DNA of 13,382 nucleotides from JAWCQZ01 sp038869515 [NCBI: Halobacteria archaeon] (GTDB lineage: Archaea; Halobacteriota; Syntropharchaeia; JACQPP01), in the NCBI GenBank assembly GCA_038869515.1, contig JAWCQZ010000014.1, positions 1-13,382 of the forward strand, read 5' to 3'. Both the position numbers and the translations under genes were made by a program. Every line of letters begins with the position of its first letter. Position 1 is the first letter of the stretch. Below are positions 123-6,973 of this stretch, piece by piece. The notes beneath the pieces are model-generated. The model was not told where the DNA came from. It saw only the letters and a program-made list of their open reading frames with translations, and did not search any database.

Positions 123-218
123 TTACACAACGAGAATCACCTCCAGCGCAAACTCTTTCGTTCTCTGTTTCAGGTCCTTCGTCCCTTCCGCCTTCATCCT
201 TTCGCCTTCCGCCTTCAT
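123..218 (-). pseudogene. Remnant of a four-helix-bundle (23S rRNA IVP-like) protein, N-terminal 31 codons
   Basis: The ATG at 218-216 overlaps the cobO stop by one base (TAATG), an arrangement typical of translational coupling. The 31-residue product starts with two near-identical direct repeats (MKAEGER, MKAEGTK) and continues KDLKQRTKEFALEVI, then stops. From memory, that segment resembles the N-terminus of small four-helix-bundle proteins related to the 23S rRNA intervening-sequence protein, which normally run to about 110-130 residues. Here the reading frame ends where the palindrome at 58-111 begins, and nothing continuing the family is visible downstream. It is therefore probably a decayed or truncated gene. 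The alternative is a chance small coupled peptide. The family match rests on about 18 residues. Confidence 0.45.
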
Positions 219-775
219 TACCTCTCCACCCCCCACCGCCACCGCACCCCTTGCTCGAATGGGTGCTTCACGCACTTCATTTCGGTGACCAGGTCCGCCG
301 CCTTCTGCAGCGCGGGCCCTGCATGGCGCCCCGTCAGGACGACCTCGGTTCTCGGGGCCTTCTTCCGCAAAAGCGCGACTACCTCCTTCTCCGACAGCAT
401 TCCCTTCCGGACCGCCACGGGCACCTCGTCGAGGACCACCAGGTCGAAGTCGCCGGAGCGCACGGCGTTGGACGCAAACTCCCATCCTTGCCGGACGATG
501 GCCTTTCCATCCTCAAACGGAAAGTCGCGGCCCGTGAATCCTCCCGGGCCGAACTGAACCACGGTCACGTTCTCCAGATGGCGCAATGCCTCCGCTTCTC
601 CGAAGGGGCCCTTGCCCCCCTTGAGAAACTGCACCACCAAGACCCGCAGCCCGTGGCCCGCGGCGCGGAGAGCGAGGCCGAAGGCAGCGGTGGTCTTGCC
701 CTTTCCGTCGCCGGTATACAAATGAACGAGACCCAACCGGTTGCGAATCGAAGCAAGAGGCACCGGCTTGGCCAT
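218..775 (-). CDS. cobO: ATP:cob(I)alamin (corrinoid) adenosyltransferase, CobO/BtuR/CobA type
   Basis: Transfers the 5'-deoxyadenosyl group of ATP to the cobalt of reduced corrinoids in the cytoplasm, making adenosylcobalamin or its precursors. The 185-residue product has the family P-loop TGDGKGKTT at residues 21-29, the VVLDE strand, VVLTGRHA, and the C-terminal ADLVTEMKCVKHPFEQG block that is diagnostic of CobO/BtuR. Length fits the family (about 170-200). I chose ATG 775 because the P-loop then lies at the usual distance from the N-terminus. The frame stays open to 955, but that stretch lies in the hairpin-bearing spacer and looks non-coding. No TATA box or ribosome binding site is visible upstream, so it is probably transcribed with cbtB-cbtA. 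It would adenosylate corrinoids brought in by the Btu-like transporter across the control region. Confidence 0.93.
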   Translation of the reverse strand: MAKPVPLASIRNRLGLVHLYTGDGKGKTTAAFGLALRAAGHGLRVLVVQFLKGGKGPFGEAEALRHLENVTVVQFGPGGFTGRDFPFEDGKAIVRQGWEFASNAVRSGDFDLVVLDEVPVAVRKGMLSEKEVVALLRKKAPRTEVVLTGRHAGPALQKAADLVTEMKCVKHPFEQGVRWRWGVER

Positions 776-964: not shown

Positions 965-1711
965 TTACGCGGGAGCGCGAGGTGAAAATCGCTTCCAGAA
1001 GAGGCCGAAGAAGAGGCCGATAGAGAGCCAGAGGACCGCCAGTCCGAGGACCGAGAAGGCGCGGAAGGAGGCGATCAAATCGGGTGGGGCCGTCACCGGG
1101 TCCGGGTTGGGGGGGATGAGGATGAAACCTGCTCCAGCGACAGCGGCGAATGTGAGCGCCCCCAGGAGCGTGCTCCGGCGCATCCCGAGACGGGTCCGGA
1201 ACCGGGCCCAGAGGAAGAACGCAAGAGCCGCAGCCAGAATGGCTGTGAGTTGGAATGCGATGAAAATCGCGGTGCGGAAGTGGATGGTTTCGGGATTGCC
1301 CACTGCCGGAGGGTTGCCAGGGTACTTGGCGAACGGCAGGAGAAAGGCGACCCCGAGGACGAGAGATGAGAGGAGAAGGCTGGAGGAAACGGCCCCCCAC
1401 CGGGCGAAACGCTCCCGGAAGAGGCTGCAGACCAGGCCGAAAACCATGGAGTATGAGATGCCGAGCATCACCGCAGCGGGGAAAAGGCCCGCTTTCTGCT
1501 GGTCCCGGGTGTAGGGAAGAGGCTCCCCGGCTTCGCCGGCAGCCGCTGCGGCCGCTTCCTCGATCGCGATGGCCTGGTCGATGGCCCGCTCGGTCACCGC
1601 AAAATGAAACGAGGCGGTGACCAATCCGGCCAGCACCCCCGCCGCCAGGGCGGTTTTGAAGATGGGGAGGAGGCGGGCTGGATCGGAGAGCCGCGAGAGG
1701 ACTGAATCCAT
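965..1711 (-). CDS. cbtA: Predicted cobalt transporter subunit CbtA
   Basis: Integral membrane subunit of the CbtAB cobalt uptake system, a family predicted from its association with B12 genes. The 248-residue product begins with a helix (FKTALAAGVLAGLVTASFHF) followed by the ERAIDQAIAIEEA block typical of CbtA, then several further hydrophobic segments (about 95-120, 125-145, 165-190, 200-217, 225-242). Single histidines in SFHF and ETIHF lie near membrane segments and are candidate metal contacts. The start ATG is 17 bases downstream of the cbtB stop, so the two are co-transcribed. The Ala-rich insert AAAAAAGEAGEPL at residues 53-65 is a local low-complexity feature. The pairing with cbtB, whose C-terminus is unmistakable, makes the call strong. 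Substrate specificity for cobalt is inferred from family and context. Confidence 0.85.
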   Translation of the reverse strand: MDSVLSRLSDPARLLPIFKTALAAGVLAGLVTASFHFAVTERAIDQAIAIEEAAAAAAGEAGEPLPYTRDQQKAGLFPAAVMLGISYSMVFGLVCSLFRERFARWGAVSSSLLLSSLVLGVAFLLPFAKYPGNPPAVGNPETIHFRTAIFIAFQLTAILAAALAFFLWARFRTRLGMRRSTLLGALTFAAVAGAGFILIPPNPDPVTAPPDLIASFRAFSVLGLAVLWLSIGLFFGLFWKRFSPRAPA

Positions 1712-1727: not shown

Positions 1728-1946
1728 TCAGTGGCACATGAAGCCGGCAGCGTGCCTCATGTCGTGGGTGAGTTCGTGGAGCCGGTTCACGCCCGACTCC
1801 ATCCCGAAACCGGCCTCAAGGATGTGGCCCTGGTCGTATCCGACGATGAAAATGAGGAGGAGGGGGACGAGCAAATAGAGAGAAAGCCAGAGAACGTTGC
1901 CCCGGCGGACCTCTTCGCGGACGACAGTTTCCAAAGGGGGTTCCAT
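1728..1946 (-). CDS. cbtB: CbtB-type small cobalt transporter subunit
   Basis: A 72-residue membrane protein with a single hydrophobic helix (about 19-38, LWLSLYLLVPLLLIFIVGYD) and a histidine-rich C-terminus, LHELTHDMRHAAGFMCH. This matches the HE-x2-HD-x-RH...CH tail that defines CbtB (usually about 60 residues) and is thought to bind the metal. It is the first gene of the minus-strand unit cbtB-cbtA-cobO. A TTTAAA box is centred about 29 nt before the ATG and no ribosome binding site is visible, so the message is probably leaderless or nearly so. The charged N-terminus (about 18 residues) should face the cytoplasm by the positive-inside tendency, which is inference. Confidence 0.85.
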   Translation of the reverse strand: MEPPLETVVREEVRRGNVLWLSLYLLVPLLLIFIVGYDQGHILEAGFGMESGVNRLHELTHDMRHAAGFMCH

Positions 1947-1971
1947 GGGGAGGGGAATCCCAGGGAGCGAG

Positions 1972-1979
1972 TTTTAAAG
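1972..1979 (-). promoter_or_regulatory. TATA box of the cbtB-cbtA-cobO operon
   Basis: Reads ACTTTAAAAC on the minus strand. The TTTAAA core is centred at 1975.5, about 29 nt from the cbtB ATG, which predicts a start of transcription within a few bases of the start codon. It is divergent from the TATA box at 2041-2046. Confidence 0.6.
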
Positions 1980-2001
1980 TTGCGGCTTAATTTCCTGGCT
2001 A

Positions 2002-2017
2002 TTAGTCTAATGACTAA
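2002..2017. promoter_or_regulatory. Candidate operator: perfect 6-4-6 palindrome between divergent promoters
   Basis: TTAGTC-TAAT-GACTAA is an exact inverted repeat in an A/T-rich island of a GC-rich region. Its centre (2009.5) lies about 34 nt from each divergent TATA centre (1975.5 and 2043.5), so one dimeric regulator bound here could act on both promoters. The adjacent winged-HTH gene at 2071 is the natural candidate to bind it. Binding is inference. Confidence 0.6.
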
Positions 2018-2039
2018 CGAATCAGAGTCTGCGAGGAAA

Positions 2040-2047
2040 CTTTTAAC
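2040..2047 (+). promoter_or_regulatory. TATA box (with purine-rich BRE) of the regulator gene
   Basis: CTTTTAAC, with its core centred at 2043.5, is preceded by GAGGAAA, a plausible B-recognition element. It is about 27 nt before the GTG at 2071, which fits a leaderless transcript and supports that start codon. Confidence 0.55.
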
Positions 2048-2070
2048 TCCATGACAGCTTTCGACTCTTT

Positions 2071-2622
2071 GTGCCGACCGCCGAGGTGAGTCCGTCCACA
2101 CGCCTCTTCCGGGCCCTGGGAAGCCCGACCCGGCGGGAACTCCTCCGCATCCTCCTCCGCAAGGAGGCCCACATCTCGGGCCTCGCCAGGGAACTGCGGC
2201 TCTCGGTGCCGGTGGTGGCGAAGCACTGCCGCATCCTGGAGGACCTGGGCCTCCTGGAGCGGAGGAAGTTCGGCTCCACCCACGTCCTCCGGGCCAAGTT
2301 CAACTCGATTTACGAGAACTTCGACGGTTTCTCCGAGACTGTCAGGGTCTCCGTGCCCCGCGGCGCCTCCCTGCTCGAAGCGCTGAAGCAGGCGGGGGCC
2401 GACGTGACCCGGCGGGGGGACGGGGAGTATGTGGTCTCCATTGACGGCGACCCGGGGCTCTACCTCTACGAAGTGGACGGCCAGCAGCCGCAGGTGACCG
2501 TGGACAAGTTCGTCCCGGAGAAGGATGTTGCTGTCGTCCTCAAGAAATTGGTTACCGTAACAAGGAAAGAAATCAAAGTGGAAGTTCGAGACGCAAACGG
2601 AAGCGAGAACTCGGGCAAGTGA
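2071..2622 (+). CDS. Winged-HTH (ArsR-like) regulator with C-terminal transcobalamin-like (DUF4430-type) domain
   Basis: Predicted transcriptional regulator of 183 residues. Residues 8-75 form an ArsR-like winged helix (RALGSPTRRELLRILL, then ISGLARELRLSVPVVAKHCRILEDLGLLERR). It lacks the ArsR cysteine metal site; its only cysteine is C53. Residues 91-160 look like the beta-grasp domain at the C-terminus of transcobalamin and intrinsic factor: a strand, then GASLLEALKQAGADV, then YVVSIDG (120-126), then YLYEVDGQQP (131-140), then a strand ending KDVAVVLKKL. In the vertebrate proteins that domain contacts cobalamin. Placed between cobalt and B12 uptake genes, this suggests direct cobalamin sensing (inference). 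GTG 2071 is favoured by TATA spacing; an in-frame GTG at 2086 is the alternative. The HTH call is firm and the ligand domain is by pattern only. Confidence 0.75.
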   Translation: MPTAEVSPSTRLFRALGSPTRRELLRILLRKEAHISGLARELRLSVPVVAKHCRILEDLGLLERRKFGSTHVLRAKFNSIYENFDGFSETVRVSVPRGASLLEALKQAGADVTRRGDGEYVVSIDGDPGLYLYEVDGQQPQVTVDKFVPEKDVAVVLKKLVTVTRKEIKVEVRDANGSENSGK

Positions 2623-2722: not shown

Positions 2723-3103
2723 ATGAAGCCGGAAGAGGTCCTCCACGAACTGACGAGTCGAGGCGGTTTTTTCGTCACTGTCAACAACGGAAACGCGGTC
2801 TGCGAGGCCAGGCTGGAGCCCGGGGCCCCCCTCCGGTTCCGGGATGGCTGGGCCACGTTGAACGATGAGAAGCGCCCCTGGCACATCCACGCCAAACTGG
2901 AAGCCGTCCGGGAGGTCCGGTTCGCCATCGAGACCCACGATGAAAAGAGCGGCAGGAAGAGCTACTCGGTCCAGTTCCTCGGGGAGGGGGGCGGCAAAGT
3001 GTTTGCGGCCTACTTCGCCGACATGTACGACGGCGATGGAAAACTGAAAGAAGAGCGGTTGCAAGAGTTTCAGAATCTGCGCGACCGATACGGCAGGAGG
3101 TGA
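2723..3103 (+). CDS. ChuX/HutX/HemS-like small cytoplasmic protein
   Basis: A 126-residue soluble protein with no signal peptide or membrane segment. Its pattern follows the HemS/ChuX heme-utilization fold: FFVTVNNGNAVCEA (like the family's VTTLVH...VILEF), GWATLNDEKRPWHIHAKLEAVREVRFAIE (like YFNLRG...GHI...IALIE), YSVQFLGEGGGKVFAAYF (like ASILFFNKEG...KIFL), then a charged amphipathic C-terminal helix. Family members bind or degrade heme and are often next to heme ABC transporters. Here the neighbours are corrinoid genes, so it may handle an imported tetrapyrrole such as cobalamin, or the transporter may carry heme. It is first in the operon, and its stop overlaps the purine tract that serves as ribosome binding site of the next gene. 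The resemblance is by eye and moderate. Confidence 0.6.
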   Translation: MKPEEVLHELTSRGGFFVTVNNGNAVCEARLEPGAPLRFRDGWATLNDEKRPWHIHAKLEAVREVRFAIETHDEKSGRKSYSVQFLGEGGGKVFAAYFADMYDGDGKLKEERLQEFQNLRDRYGRR

Positions 3104-3105
3104 CC

Positions 3106-4611
3106 GTGCGCCTCTCGGCCATCCTTCTCGTATTGCCGACGCTCTTCCTCGCCGGTTGCACCGGCAGCGCCCCCGAAGCGAAGCCTGCCGCCTCCCCTCC
3201 ACCGGTCTACGATTCCGCCTATGGGGGCCTCAAGGTGGTCTTGGACCCACCGGGCCTTTCCGCCCCAATTTTCCTCGACGGCCAGGAGGTAGGGCGCGGT
3301 GCCTATTCTACGAACACGATGAATCCGGGGGCTTACGTCGTCTCTTTCGGGGAGGTTCAGGGCTACCGCAAGCCGGAAGCCGTGGTTGTCAAGGTGGAGT
3401 CCGACAGGGTGACTGCCACTGTCGGGCGCTTCGAATTCGCTTCCGTGGTCGCTCTCTCCTCTACCCCGACTCCGGCCCCCAATTCCACTCCCACACCCAG
3501 CCCTACTCCCAACGCAACCCCGTCACCGACTGCAACCCCTTCCCCCAGTCCAGCTTCAACGCCCAGCCCATCGGCCATCCCCACGCCCACCCCCGCCCCC
3601 TTCAACCGCACGCTCTCCATCCAATACGCGAAACTGTTCAACGTCACCTACGGCTCCGGCATCAAGGTCCTCCGGGACGGGGCCAACCGGACCCTGACGC
3701 TGATTCCGCGGGACGGCCCGGAAACGGTCCGTGGCACCAGCGTGGTCCGCGTTCCAGTCCAGCGCATGGTCCTCTTCTCCTCAACCCATGCCGCCATGCT
3801 CGACCGGCTCGGGAGCTCCGCGCCCGTGGTGGGAGTCACTTGGGGTGGCCAGTTCGAATGGTTCATCCCCTCCATCAAGAACGGGTTGGCTTCCGGAGCC
3901 ATCAAGGACCTCGGGCCTGGTAGCACCCCGAACTATGAACTCCTGGCCTCCCTGAACCCCGACCTCGTGGTCCTCGTCGGGGGGGTGAGCTCTTTCGGGA
4001 CCCATGCTCAGAAACTGGAGGAGCTGGGAATCCCCTACGCGGTCAACTCGGAGTGGCTGGAGGGGCACCCCCTGGCCCGGGGCGAGTGGATGAAGTTCTT
4101 CGCGGCCTTCACCAACGAGGAGGCCAAGGCGGAACGGGTCTTCAACGAGGTCCGCGACCGGGTTCTGAATGTGGTCCTGAAGGTGGCGGGAGCCCAGCCC
4201 CGGGATGTCTTATGGGCCCTCATGAGCGGGGGCATCGTCTATGTGCCGGCGGCGGAAAATTACGCAGCGAAAGCGGTCTCTCTGGCCGGCGGACGGTACG
4301 TTTTCTCCGACGTGCACGGCACGGGCTCGGCCCAAGTGAGCGCGGAGGAAATCGTGAACCGAAGTGGCAACGTGGGTGTCTGGGTCTACTCCAGCACCCT
4401 CGTGAACACCACCCGCGACGTGGTCAACACCAGCGTCCTCTTCGCCAACGTGTCGGCCCTGCAGCAGTGCAACGTCTATGCGTTCCAACCCTGGTACTGG
4501 CAGAGCCTCGACCGGGTGGACGAGTTCATGCAGGATGTGGGGGCCATCATTCACCCCGCGCGCTTCCCGGGCCACTCCCTGCTCCAGTTCAAGAGATTGC
4601 CCTGCCCCTGA
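3106..4611 (+). CDS. btuF: Corrinoid/siderophore-type ABC transporter substrate-binding lipoprotein with N-terminal PEGA domain (BtuF-like)
   Basis: Surface-anchored receptor that captures the substrate and delivers it to the permease. The order in the 501 residues is: a signal peptide ending in lipobox LAGC (C18); a PEGA-like domain at about 40-111 (GGLKVVLDPPG..IFLDGQEVG..MNPGAYVVSFGEVQGY); a Ser/Thr/Pro linker at about 119-165; then a class III (helical-backbone) binding domain from about 168, with RMVLFSSTHAAMLDRLG, VVGVTWGG, NYELLASLNPDLVVL and KLEELGIP. I chose GTG 3106 because AGGAGG at 3095-3100 is then correctly spaced. GTG 3100 would overlap that site. Several NxT/S sequons suggest an exposed, possibly glycosylated protein. 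B12 as substrate is inferred from cobO and cbtAB; heme or a siderophore remains possible. Confidence 0.85.
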   Translation: MRLSAILLVLPTLFLAGCTGSAPEAKPAASPPPVYDSAYGGLKVVLDPPGLSAPIFLDGQEVGRGAYSTNTMNPGAYVVSFGEVQGYRKPEAVVVKVESDRVTATVGRFEFASVVALSSTPTPAPNSTPTPSPTPNATPSPTATPSPSPASTPSPSAIPTPTPAPFNRTLSIQYAKLFNVTYGSGIKVLRDGANRTLTLIPRDGPETVRGTSVVRVPVQRMVLFSSTHAAMLDRLGSSAPVVGVTWGGQFEWFIPSIKNGLASGAIKDLGPGSTPNYELLASLNPDLVVLVGGVSSFGTHAQKLEELGIPYAVNSEWLEGHPLARGEWMKFFAAFTNEEAKAERVFNEVRDRVLNVVLKVAGAQPRDVLWALMSGGIVYVPAAENYAAKAVSLAGGRYVFSDVHGTGSAQVSAEEIVNRSGNVGVWVYSSTLVNTTRDVVNTSVLFANVSALQQCNVYAFQPWYWQSLDRVDEFMQDVGAIIHPARFPGHSLLQFKRLPCP

Positions 4612-4616
4612 CGGCC

Positions 4617-5771
4617 GTGGCCCACAACCATCTCCCCCACTCCGGCCATCCCCTGCTCAAGGGACTCGATGACCCGGCGCCCGCATCCACGAACCTGCCA
4701 AAAGACCGGGACCGGGCCACGGACTCCCGCGCCCCCGGGCTGCCGGCATCCACCTCCCGGCGAGCCGTTCTCGCTCTTCTGTGCCTCGGATTTCTCGTTC
4801 CCATCGCCGCCTGGCTCAGCCTGGCCCTGGGCGCGGTCTCCCTTCCGGGCGGCGAGGTTGCGGAATGCGTCCTGGGAAAATGTCCATCGCCCACCCTGGA
4901 GACCATCCTCTGGAAAATCCGGATTCCGAGGACCCTCGCCGTTCTCCTGGGGGGCGCGGCCCTCGCCGTCTCGGGCGTGCTCCTCCAGGCCCTCTTCCGC
5001 AACCCCCTCGCCGGGCCTGGCGTCCTCGGAATCTCGGGGGGAGCCTCGCTGACGGTGGCCCTCTTCGTCCTGGGAGGGGTCTCGCTGGGCCTACCGGCCC
5101 GGGAGCAGACATGGGGTTTGGTTGCGGTGGCCTTCGCGGGAGCCATGCTGGTGACCGGGTTCCTCCTGGCGCTGAGCCAGATTGTGCGCTCCATCACCGG
5201 TCTCCTGATTGTGGGGCTGATGCTGGGCTTCCTCCTCTCGTCGGTGACCGGCATCCTGGGAGTCCTGGCCGACGCCGCGCGACTCCAGGTCTTCTATGTC
5301 TGGACAATGGGGTCCTTCGCGCCGGTGGTCTGGAGCCAGGTCCACATCCTGGCGGTCGTGGTTCCCGCCGCGGTGGCGGCCGCCCTGCTGACCTCCAAGG
5401 CCCTGGACGCGCTCCTCATGGGGGAGGAGTACGCCCAGACCATGGGAATCCACTACCGCCGCAGCCGGTGGACGGTCATCGGCCTCTCCAGCCTGTTGGC
5501 GGCGACCGTGGTGGCCTTCGCGGGCCCCGTGGCCTTCGTGGGCACGGTCTCCCCGATCCTGGCGCGGCTCGTCATCCGGTCGGGCGTACACAGGATAGCC
5601 GTCGTCGCCTCGGCCCTCGTGGGCGCGCTGTTGACCCTCGCGGCCGATGTGGTTGCCCGGGTGGCCTTGCGGCCCGTCGAGCTTCCCACGGGCTCCATCA
5701 CCGCCATCATCGGGGTCCCGGTGGTCCTGGCCATCCTCATCGGCCGGAGCGGGAGGGGGCCGTGGACCTAG
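4617..5771 (+). CDS. btuC: BtuC/FecCD-family ABC transporter permease
   Basis: Membrane channel of the importer. The 384-residue protein has the FecCD signature RIPRTLAVLLGGAALAVSGVLLQALFRNPLAGPGVLG (in two parts, residues 103-138), about ten hydrophobic segments, and the C-terminal FAGPVAFVGTVSPILAR...GVHR and LPTGSITAIIGVPVVLAIL blocks that contact the ATPase and close the family. GTG 4617 lies five bases after the btuF stop. It has no clear ribosome binding site and may be translationally coupled. Between it and the first helix is a hydrophilic stretch of about 48 residues, longer than usual, that begins AHNHLPHSGH. Nearly all its codons end in G or C like the rest of the gene, so it looks truly coding. 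The 3' end overlaps the next gene by 10 bases. Confidence 0.9.
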   Translation: MAHNHLPHSGHPLLKGLDDPAPASTNLPKDRDRATDSRAPGLPASTSRRAVLALLCLGFLVPIAAWLSLALGAVSLPGGEVAECVLGKCPSPTLETILWKIRIPRTLAVLLGGAALAVSGVLLQALFRNPLAGPGVLGISGGASLTVALFVLGGVSLGLPAREQTWGLVAVAFAGAMLVTGFLLALSQIVRSITGLLIVGLMLGFLLSSVTGILGVLADAARLQVFYVWTMGSFAPVVWSQVHILAVVVPAAVAAALLTSKALDALLMGEEYAQTMGIHYRRSRWTVIGLSSLLAATVVAFAGPVAFVGTVSPILARLVIRSGVHRIAVVASALVGALLTLAADVVARVALRPVELPTGSITAIIGVPVVLAILIGRSGRGPWT

Positions 5772-6973
5772 AGGCATCCGGCCTCGCCTTCGGTTTTCGA
5801 AAGGCCCAGGCCGTGCTCCGGGACCTGGAACTCCTCATCCCGAGCGGGCAACTGGTGGCCCTCATCGGCGCCAACGGCGCGGGGAAGTCCACCCTTCTCC
5901 GCTGCCTGGCCCGGCTTCTTCGGCCCACCCGCGGGACCGTCTCCCTCGGTGGAAAAGAGATTGGGGCCCTCTCCGCGGAGGAGCTGGCGAGAATGGAGGC
6001 CGCGGTCCTCACAGACCGTGTGGCACCCCTGAACATGACCGCAGGCGAGGTCATCGCCCTGGGCCGTCTTCCCCGGCAGGGCCTCCTGGGACGGATGGAC
6101 GCGCAGGACAGGGCCGCCGTGGAAAAAGCGGCCGTGGCCATGGGAGTGGCCGGCCTCCTGGACCGCTCCTTCGGGGAGCTCAGCGACGGCCAGAAGCAGA
6201 AGGTTCTCATCGCCCGGGCTCTGGCCCAGGAGCCGCGGGTGATGATTCTGGACGAGCCGACGAGTTTCCTGGACCTGCGGGCGCGGCTGGAGGTCCTCGC
6301 GCTCCTGCGGGGGCTGGCCCGGAAGACCGGGATGAGCCTCCTGGTCTCCACCCACGATTTGGAGCTGGTCTCCCGATACGCCGACCGGGTGGTCATCCTC
6401 CAGGACGGGCGGCTTGTGGCCTCGGGAATCCCTGAGGAAGTGCTCTGCGGCGAGGTCGTGCGGGACCTTTACGGCGCTGGGGAAGGGAGTTGGAGCCCGC
6501 TGTTTGGTTCCGTGGAACTCTCCGCCACTGGAAACGGGAGCCGGGAGGTCTTCGTGGTCGCGGGCAACGGGACGGGAGTTCCGGTCTACCGTCTCCTGGT
6601 ACGGGGGACCGTGGGCTTCGCGACGGGGGTCCTGATGGGGAACGACGTGGACGCCCACTTGGCCGCGGTCATGGGGGTTCCGGCGGCGTCAACGCCGCCT
6701 TTTGAAGCTCCCACACCCGGCGAGGTCGAAGCCGTATTTCGTGCCTATGCAAGCGCTCGTTGTGTCATTGATTCTGGATTTCCCGTGAACCCCGCCTCCA
6801 TGCACAACCTCCAACTCGTGCGCCGTTTCCTTGAAGGGGGCAAAATGGTGGCCTGCATTCGCCCGCGCGGCGAGGCTCGTGAACTCTATGGGACGGCGAA
6901 GGGCGTCCGGTGCACATCCCTTCGTGAGGTTCCCGCCATCCTGGGGGGCGCCTCCGGTGAAGGTTCTTCTTAA
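5762..6973 (+). CDS. btuD: ABC transporter ATPase (BtuD/FecE type) with C-terminal Rossmann-like extension
   Basis: Drives import by ATP hydrolysis. The 403-residue protein has Walker A GANGAGKST (36-44), Q-loop region near 80-86, signature LSDGQ (140-144, Asp in place of the common Gly), Walker B VMILDEP (160-166) and switch histidine H198 (STHD). The ATPase domain ends near 235, after which FGSVEL leads into about 160 extra residues: EVFVVAGNGTGVPVYRLLV, VGFATGVLMGNDVDAHLAAVMG, CVIDSGFPVNPASMHNLQLV. This is an alternating strand-helix pattern with a glycine-rich turn, like a nucleotide-binding fold. Similar tails occur in ATPases of this group, but I know of no proven function. GTG 5762 follows GGGAGGGGG and overlaps btuC. 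The upstream open frame is only the shadow of btuC. Confidence 0.9.
   Translation: MDLEASGLAFGFRKAQAVLRDLELLIPSGQLVALIGANGAGKSTLLRCLARLLRPTRGTVSLGGKEIGALSAEELARMEAAVLTDRVAPLNMTAGEVIALGRLPRQGLLGRMDAQDRAAVEKAAVAMGVAGLLDRSFGELSDGQKQKVLIARALAQEPRVMILDEPTSFLDLRARLEVLALLRGLARKTGMSLLVSTHDLELVSRYADRVVILQDGRLVASGIPEEVLCGEVVRDLYGAGEGSWSPLFGSVELSATGNGSREVFVVAGNGTGVPVYRLLVRGTVGFATGVLMGNDVDAHLAAVMGVPAASTPPFEAPTPGEVEAVFRAYASARCVIDSGFPVNPASMHNLQLVRRFLEGGKMVACIRPRGEARELYGTAKGVRCTSLREVPAILGGASGEGSS

What the first reader, a model, noticed from the sequence alone, without database searches (positions are those of the whole stretch)
2071..2622. Winged-HTH fused to a transcobalamin-like domain: a possible protein cobalamin sensor
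The N-terminal half is an ArsR-like winged helix without the ArsR metal-site cysteines. The C-terminal half has the layout of the DUF4430/transcobalamin C-terminal beta-grasp domain (SLLEALKQAG, YVVSIDG, YLYEVDGQQP, final KDVAVVL strand). In transcobalamin and intrinsic factor that domain contacts cobalamin. Fused to a DNA-binding domain and set between cobalt import, corrinoid adenosylation and a corrinoid-type ABC transporter, it would make a one-component B12 repressor. That would be an archaeal protein alternative to the bacterial cobalamin riboswitch and unlike the light sensor CarH. The domain match is by pattern; sensing is inference.
Basis: partly seen in the sequence, partly recalled or inferred. 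Interest (0 to 1): 0.85.

Follow-up and report, generated by a model that had tools for sequence, protein, structure and literature searches.

The report
Gene switch with B12-binder-like sensor domain
A small predicted gene switch, built from a DNA-binding part and a part related to the vitamin B12 carriers of animals, sits between cobalt-uptake and B12-type genes; the design and the idea that it senses B12 were published in 2007, I found no test of them, and a comparison of related genomes gives the idea some support without proving it.

Summary
Window 2071-2622(+) encodes an ArsR-type winged helix (HTH_5, E 2e-9) plus a C-terminal DUF4430/transcobalamin-like domain. DUF4430 is sub-threshold in this sequence (20.1 bits, cut-off 23.8) but real: 78 of 99 family members match it (best 2.6e-8). 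Homologues (36-49% identity) occur at 111 places in 84 of 294 genomes of one archaeal phylum. The idea is not new: Burroughs et al. 2007 (PMC1796856) described ArsR-SLBB fusions and proposed sensing of B12, its precursors or another ligand. New here is context: of 107 homologues, 19 lie within 10 kb of CbiZ (1.1 expected), 10 of CbiM (1.8), 9 of CobN-like genes (1.8); glutamine-synthetase control 0 (1.7). Against: 68 of 107 lack such neighbours, FecCD is not enriched, and DNA-repair-like genes (radical SAM, MutS-type) adjoin the regulator in 31 of 98 loci, including L113, otherwise the layout most like the window. Fold test inconclusive. Most likely a one-component regulator of the window's cobalt/corrinoid genes; ligand unproven (corrinoid, other tetrapyrrole, Co/Ni ion, or none of these).

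The parts
2071..2622 (+). ArsR-type winged helix fused to DUF4430 (transcobalamin C-terminal-like, SLBB) domain, 183 aa, GTG start
2101..2304 (+). winged helix-turn-helix part (residues 11-78); recognition-helix residues S45, V46, P47, V48, K51, H52 invariant or nearly so in 99 members
2362..2526 (+). DUF4430 match (residues 98-152); invariant or nearly invariant G98, L105, G129, Y133, E134, G137 (K158 and L160 just beyond)
1947..2070 (.). 124-bp divergent intergenic region shared by cbtB(-) and the regulator(+); TATA-like CTTTTAA at 2040-2046 (+) and CTTTAAAA at 1972-1979 (-), each about 25-33 nt before a start codon, as in leaderless archaeal genes (read by eye, no statistic)
2002..2017 (.). 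palindrome TTAGTCtaatGACTAA, a candidate operator only: 103 of 500 shuffles hold an inverted repeat with arms at least as long; exact pattern absent from the 140 loci
1728..1946 (-). CbtB-like cobalt transporter subunit (PF09489, 39.2 bits over 27)
965..1711 (-). CbtA-like cobalt transporter subunit (PF09490, 156.3 bits)
218..775 (-). CobA/CobO/BtuR corrinoid adenosyltransferase (PF02572, 200.5 bits); likely start at 775 inside the longer frame 218-955
2723..3103 (+). ChuX/HutX-like protein (25.1 bits against cut-off 25; borderline); TATA-like CTTTATAG at 2689-2696 in front (by eye)
3100..4611 (+). BtuF-like substrate-binding protein (PF01497, 76.6 bits) behind an N-terminal region with a Pro/Thr/Ser-rich linker
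4779..5771 (+). FecCD/BtuC-like permease (PF01032, 249.9 bits); exact start not settled
5765..6973 (+). ABC ATPase; best NCBIfam model is PRK09536 corrinoid ABC transporter ATPase (218.3 bits, cut-off 537; model positions 15-349 of 402)

Best explanation
A one-component transcription factor. Shown here: the two-domain make-up, the divergent geometry, and a more-than-chance association of homologues with cobalt/corrinoid genes. Inferred: repression rather than activation, the operator, and the ligand.
For: Domain content. Divergent placement next to cbtB-cbtA-cobA and upstream of a BtuFCD-like set. Of 107 homologues in 80 genomes, within 10 kb: CbiZ 19 (1.13 expected), CbiM 10 (1.84), CobN-like 9 (1.82, listed rows), glutamine synthetase control 0 (1.70) (first pass with fewer rows). 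Fetched members collapsed to 27 clusters at 75% identity: 10 clusters carry CbiZ, CbiM or CobN near at least half their members against 1.40 expected. Layouts: regulator, PGF-CTERM protein, CbiM, a short protein, CbiQ-type and ATPase genes on one strand in L098 and L106; BtuF-, FecCD- and ATPase-like genes divergent from the regulator unit and CbiM about 8 kb off in L113. 0 of 80 of these genomes has a cobalamin riboswitch over cut-off while 8 of 14 control genomes do. Same proposal in print in 2007.
Against: 68 of 107 homologues have none of CbiZ, CbiM, CobN or listed FecCD within 10 kb. FecCD alone is not enriched (4 seen, 2.08 expected). DNA-repair-like genes adjoin the regulator in 31 of 98 loci (radical SAM cluster 27, MutS_V-like cluster 28, plus MutS and MutL in L113 and L126) and an ADP-ribosylglycohydrolase cluster in 27 of 98. 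14 of the 16 CbiZ-cluster loci also hold the MutS_V-like cluster, so CbiZ linkage there may be one event. L113 has MutS and MutL directly downstream. The families scored were picked after looking at neighbourhoods. No conserved His or Cys in the DUF4430 part to coordinate cobalt. No shared operator found. The window's protein is a deep branch with no close relative in the sample.
Confidence: 0.4

Rival explanations
1. The DUF4430 domain binds some other ligand, or serves dimer or protein contact, and the family's common role lies elsewhere (DNA repair or ADP-ribose related); the window's B12 surroundings reflect one recruitment or chance.
For: Commonest neighbourhood in the sample: AP_endonuc_2-type TIM barrel - regulator - radical SAM (rSAM_link_UDG) - DUF4130 - MutS_V-like; 31 of 98 loci have the radical SAM, the MutS_V-like protein, or MutS and MutL (L113, L126); ADP-ribosylglycohydrolase cluster in 27 of 98; F420 ligase cluster in 7 of 98. 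Authors and a reviewer of the 2007 paper also allowed for other ligands.
Against: Ten of 27 clusters carry Co/corrinoid genes against 1.40 expected; the window has cobalt import, adenosyltransferase and a corrinoid-type ABC set all adjacent and no repair gene among the nine proteins scanned.
Confidence: 0.32
2. A heme or general tetrapyrrole sensor: the ligand is a porphyrin-type compound, not specifically a corrinoid.
For: ChuX/HutX-like gene directly downstream (borderline); Peripla_BP_2/FecCD/ATPase sets serve heme as well as B12 (general knowledge); in the seven-member cluster of L070 the regulator stands near DUF2162, MotA/ExbB, DUF2149 and CobN-like genes, a composition like the Bacteroidota hmu operon, where the CobN-like HmuS takes part in heme metabolism (PMC13227078, title and passages).
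Against: CbtAB and the corrinoid adenosyltransferase next door, and CbiZ/CbiM near relatives, point to cobalt and corrinoids; the HutX match is at the cut-off only; no HutX relative was found near the 98 homologues.
Confidence: 0.13
3. A Co/Ni ion sensor of the ArsR metalloregulator type, with the DUF4430 domain secondary.
For: CbiM, CbiQ, NicO and CbtAB are Co/Ni transport families; residue 34 is His in 99 of 99 members and aligns with the first Cys of the CVC motif of Lmo1102 (CadC-like nature of Lmo1102 is recalled).
Against: A single conserved His is no metal site; no conserved Cys; the other conserved His residues (52, 71) lie in the recognition helix and wing (placement by analogy); CbiZ and adenosyltransferase act on the corrinoid, not the ion.
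Confidence: 0.13

Closest known systems
ArsR-wHTH + transcobalamin-like SLBB fusions (Burroughs, Balaji, Iyer, Aravind 2007, PMC1796856; example Methanosarcina gi:72395507)
   Same: same two domains, intracellular; same proposed role as one-component factor for B12, its precursors or an unknown ligand
   Different: this member has CbtAB, adenosyltransferase, BtuFCD-like and HutX-like genes around it; I did not have the gi sequence in hand, so that my family is the one described is inferred from the description
Animal transcobalamin / intrinsic factor C-terminal domain (DUF4430, PF14478; that Pfam's DUF4430 covers it is recalled)
   Same: DUF4430 profile match in 78 of 99 members
   Different: no alpha/alpha toroid partner found, no PDB transcobalamin hit with a profile of 45 members
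ArsR/SmtB metalloregulators (CzrA, SmtB, CadC)
   Same: winged-helix part
   Different: no conserved Cys site; extra C-terminal domain
CarH (recalled)
   Same: would be a B12-responsive repressor
   Different: CarH has a MerR-type DNA-binding part and a B12 domain with a cobalt-ligating His (recalled); here ArsR-type plus DUF4430 without conserved His in the C-terminal part
Cobalamin riboswitch (RF00174)
   Same: would control the same genes
   Different: no Rfam match at gathering score in the window; none over cut-off in 80 of 80 genomes with the protein

Membership tests
ArsR-type winged helix (PF01022 HTH_5) | profile match over curated cut-off | tested here: met
   37.6 bits over 22; 99 of 99 members match at E <= 0.01
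ArsR/SmtB metalloregulator | metal-binding Cys/His set (alpha3 or alpha5 site) | tested here: not met
   no conserved Cys; conserved His only at 34, 52, 71
DUF4430 (PF14478) | profile match over curated cut-off 23.8 bits in the window protein itself | tested here: not met
   18.0 bits full length, 20.1 bits domain alone
DUF4430 (PF14478) | profile match in the protein's own family | tested here: met
   78 of 99 at E <= 0.01, best 2.6e-8; how many pass the curated cut-off was not reported
SLBB superfamily, transcobalamin-like clade | two conserved glycines and hairpin insert after the helix | tested here: inconclusive
   G98 and G129 in 99 of 99, G137 in 97 of 99; mapping to the published positions is mine, made without a structure; weak models show strand-helix-hairpin order
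SLBB superfamily, transcobalamin-like clade | beta-grasp fold superposable on transcobalamin 2bbc | tested here: inconclusive
   pLDDT 67.1, best Foldseek E 0.17, best VIA Z 6.5 to a KA1 domain
ArsR-SLBB one-component factor (Burroughs 2007) | ArsR wHTH fused to a transcobalamin-like SLBB domain | tested here: met
   by sequence profiles; description read
B12-responsive regulator | binds a corrinoid and changes transcription | not testable with these tools
   needs protein and DNA work
CarH | MerR-type HTH plus B12-binding domain with ligating His | tested here: not met
   no MerR or B12-binding family among the 13 Pfam families at E <= 1; no conserved C-terminal His

The most novel reading that the evidence does not exclude
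The ArsR-DUF4430 proteins are a widespread archaeal family of protein sensors for corrinoids (or corrinoid-like tetrapyrroles) that do the job of the missing cobalamin riboswitch: they set cobalt uptake (CbtAB, CbiMQO), corrinoid salvage (CbiZ), import (BtuFCD) and tetrapyrrole demetallation (CobN/HmuS-like) in several lineages, and some tie B12 status to DNA-repair genes, having borrowed the same domain that animals use to carry vitamin B12.
Probability: 0.26. Interest if true: 0.68.

Novelty: new member of a known kind. Interest (0 to 1): 0.43.

Why it matters
How archaea regulate B12 and cobalt genes without the cobalamin riboswitch appears to be open: my paper searches (listings only) showed me no tested archaeal regulator, though the library lacks most subscription papers. 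The 2007 prediction that ArsR-SLBB proteins do this came with little context; the window and the layouts in L098, L106 and L113 give specific genes and promoters on which it can be tested directly.

Tried and rejected
Operator search: the palindrome at 2002-2017 is no better than chance as an inverted repeat (103 of 500 shuffles), its exact pattern is not in 140 loci, and a palindromic motif search on 35 upstream regions gave a low-information motif (log-likelihood 36.0 against 25.9-31.8, and 47.8 against 28.5-33.8, in three shuffles each; real data had 40 random starts and shuffles 15, which favours the real data). I do not claim an operator.

Fold: AlphaFold2 on the whole protein (pLDDT 55.9, C-terminal half mostly under 50) and on the C-terminal 94 residues (pLDDT 67.1), single sequences; Foldseek best E 0.17, VIA best Z 6.5 to a KA1 domain. 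Transcobalamin was not among the rows shown; inconclusive either way. A PDB profile search with 45 C-terminal domains gave five chance-level hits, none transcobalamin.

Relatives of the window itself: the genome-contig scan found two loci with HTH-level matches only, viral contigs none, plasmids only HTH-level matches in Sinorhizobium (50 of 72,556 records, none covering 80% of the query). The window's own genome is not held, so its phylum was not sampled.

Rejected: CobN-like neighbours as plain cobaltochelatase evidence; the 1701-aa protein sits with ExbB, DUF2149 and DUF2162 and may be HmuS-like (heme).

Counting details: I used 75 of 81 listed CbiZ rows, 131 of 142 CbiM, 147 of 150 CobN, 150 of 150 FecCD and 90 of 130 GlnA, leaving out fragments and second copies; one search repeats the count with all those rows and gives the same observed numbers and slightly higher expected ones. 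The CobN and FecCD listings were themselves cut by the tool. The cluster count was not repeated. Expected values assume random placement and independent genomes. Of 111 places 100 were fetched; 98 gave an intact frame in my simple caller (L086 and L122 did not). Four of the 84 genomes were left out of the family searches (limit of 80 handles). In the riboswitch search only part of the first-look candidates per genome was scored, with stricter filters, so weak copies could be missed.

Full report
WHAT IS THERE. Window 2071-2622 (+) is an open frame of 183 aa with a GTG start. Residues 18-63 match the ArsR-type helix-turn-helix (PF01022, E 2e-9), and the C-terminal half alone matches DUF4430 (PF14478) at E 9.2e-4, 20.1 bits, below the 23.8-bit cut-off. 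The gene stands back to back with cbtB (1728-1946, -), followed by cbtA and a CobA/BtuR adenosyltransferase on that strand; downstream on the + strand lie a borderline ChuX/HutX-like gene, a BtuF-like binding protein, a FecCD permease and an ABC ATPase whose best NCBIfam model is the corrinoid transporter ATPase PRK09536, well under its cut-off. Read by eye, TATA-like boxes stand about 24-34 nt before the starts of the regulator, cbtB and the HutX-like gene, which would fit three nearly leaderless transcripts. There is no Rfam match at gathering score in the window.

IS THE DOMAIN CALL SOUND. A search of 294 genomes of one archaeal phylum (reached through a Methanophagales locus) found 111 places in 84 genomes with a match through both halves (two of them partial), 36-49% identical to the window protein. 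I fetched 100 of the 111 with flanks; 98 gave an intact frame. Of these 98 plus the window, 78 of 99 match DUF4430 at E <= 0.01, best 2.6e-8, and 99 of 99 match HTH_5. The weak score in the window is therefore a matter of divergence. Invariant or nearly invariant residues in the C-terminal half are G98, L105, G129, Y133, E134, G137, K158, L160; none is His or Cys. The recognition helix is nearly invariant, which suggests a common operator, but I found none.

FOLD. Two single-sequence AlphaFold2 models gave mean pLDDT 55.9 and 67.1. The order strand - helix - hairpin - strand fits the published description of the transcobalamin-like clade, but structure searches gave only non-specific matches. 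The fold is in effect untested.

CONTEXT OF HOMOLOGUES. In 80 genomes with 107 homologues I asked how many lie within 10 kb of given families, against random placement in genomes of that size. With all listed rows: CbiZ (cobinamide salvage) 19, expected 1.13; CbiM (cobalt/nickel uptake) 10, expected 1.84; CobN-like 9, expected 1.82; FecCD 4, expected 2.08, not significant; glutamine synthetase as control 0, expected 1.70. The CobN and FecCD lists were cut by the tool. In all, 39 of 107 have at least one of the four nearby and 68 have none. Because relatives are not independent, I collapsed the fetched members into clusters: at 75% identity 10 of 27 clusters have CbiZ, CbiM or CobN near at least half their members, 1.40 expected; at 65% identity 6 of 10 against 0.61; at 60% 4 of 6 against 0.38. 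With CbiZ and CbiM only, the figures are 8 of 27 (0.92), 4 of 10 (0.40) and 2 of 6 (0.24). The families were chosen after I had seen the neighbourhoods, so any P value is too small; the contrast with the control stands.

LAYOUTS THAT SPEAK FOR COBALT/CORRINOID. L098 and L106: regulator, a PGF-CTERM protein (tested in L098), CbiM, a short protein without Pfam match, CbiQ-type and ATPase genes, all on one strand. L113: BtuF-, FecCD- and ATPase-like genes divergent from the regulator and its upstream TIM-barrel gene, CbiM about 8 kb away. L136 and L139 with three unfetched relatives: CbiM about 4.3 kb away, and a NicO protein two genes upstream in L136 and L139. L112 and L114: CbiZ about 1.4 kb away start to start. 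Seven-member cluster of L070, six of seven with CobN within 10 kb: DUF2162, MotA/ExbB, DUF2149 and CobN-like genes. HTH-only short paralogues stand 0.7-1.1 kb from CbiZ in three genomes and 1.2-1.7 kb from FecCD in two.

LAYOUTS THAT SPEAK AGAINST. A radical SAM protein cluster (tested member: rSAM_link_UDG family) lies near the regulator in 27 of 98 loci, in 26 as the next gene on the same strand; a MutS_V-like cluster lies near it in 28; a TIM-barrel gene (AP_endonuc_2 type) stands just upstream in 28. In L113 and L126 the next two genes are full MutS and MutL. Taken together 31 of 98 loci have such repair-like genes. The CbiZ of the Methanosarcina-type loci lies two genes upstream of this block, and 14 of the 16 CbiZ-cluster loci also hold the MutS_V-like protein; that group supplies 16 of the 19 CbiZ cases, so for it CbiZ linkage may be one event and the repair-like block the true target. 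Another cluster, 27 of 98 loci, is an ADP-ribosylglycohydrolase, mostly just upstream, and 7 loci have an F420 ligase upstream. The window's protein is a deep branch on the family tree, so none of these layouts can be carried over to it by orthology.

RIBOSWITCH. RF00174 reaches its cut-off in 0 of 80 of these genomes (two sub-threshold matches; only part of the candidates scored) and in 8 of 14 control genomes, all eight bacterial. That fits a protein regulator, but 238 of 294 genomes of the phylum have CbiM while only 84 have the regulator, so it cannot be the sole regulator of such genes.

WHAT IS KNOWN. Burroughs and colleagues (2007, PMC1796856; I saw the abstract, section 6, part 1 of section 7 and found passages) defined the SLBB superfamily, placed the transcobalamin C-terminal domain in it, described intracellular fusions with ArsR-like winged helices in Methanosarcina and AraC-like ones in Lactobacillus, and wrote that they probably act as one-component transcription factors for B12, its precursors or another ligand; in review they reworded the text to allow a wider range of ligands. 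I saw no later test in nine paper searches (listings only, apart from passages of PMC13227078). So the architecture and the idea are known; the window is a new, better placed member, and the neighbourhood counts are new evidence on both sides.

MECHANISM AND SCORES. I give 0.40 to a one-component regulator of the adjoining cobalt/corrinoid genes with a corrinoid as ligand; 0.32 to a different ligand or role; 0.13 to heme or another tetrapyrrole (the HutX-like gene and HmuS-like sets point there); 0.13 to a Co/Ni ion (His34 is in 99 of 99 and aligns with a Cys of Lmo1102). Interest 0.43: not new as an idea, but an old prediction that can now be tested on named layouts.

Noticed in passing
window 2723-3103: ChuX/HutX-like gene (heme carrier family, at the Pfam cut-off) placed first in a B12-type ABC transporter gene set; could be a cytosolic tetrapyrrole carrier.
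   Followed up: partly
L098:9054-14014, L106:1730-6214: Regulator followed on one strand by a PGF-CTERM protein (His-rich start, by eye), CbiM, a short unmatched protein, CbiQ-type and ATPase genes: a likely cobalt/nickel uptake operon beside this regulator.
   Followed up: partly
L074:2242-9195; similar sets in L070, L075, L085, L089, L101: CobN-like protein (1701 aa in L074) with MotA/ExbB, DUF2149 and DUF2162 genes, resembling the Bacteroidota hmu (heme) operon in composition, beside the regulator and a fibrillarin/Nop gene pair.
   Followed up: partly
L120, L121, L123-L125, L127-L129, L131-L133, L140 and others: Block CbiZ - TIM barrel - regulator - rSAM_link_UDG - DUF4130 - MutS_V-like; the MutS_V-like protein's best NCBIfam model is the B12-enzyme reactivase KamC, but far below cut-off (84 of 300 bits).
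   Followed up: no
L113:4517-10287, L126:9118-14221: Regulator directly followed by MutS and MutL; in L113 an AP_endonuc_2-type TIM barrel lies just upstream.
   Followed up: partly
G132:C1:349721, G137:C1:1338313, G187:C7:686860: Short ArsR-type paralogues (HTH-level match only) within about 1.1 kb of a second CbiZ copy.
   Followed up: no
window 2071-2622, residue 34: His34 present in 99 of 99 members, at the place of the first Cys of the CVC motif in Lmo1102.
   Followed up: partly
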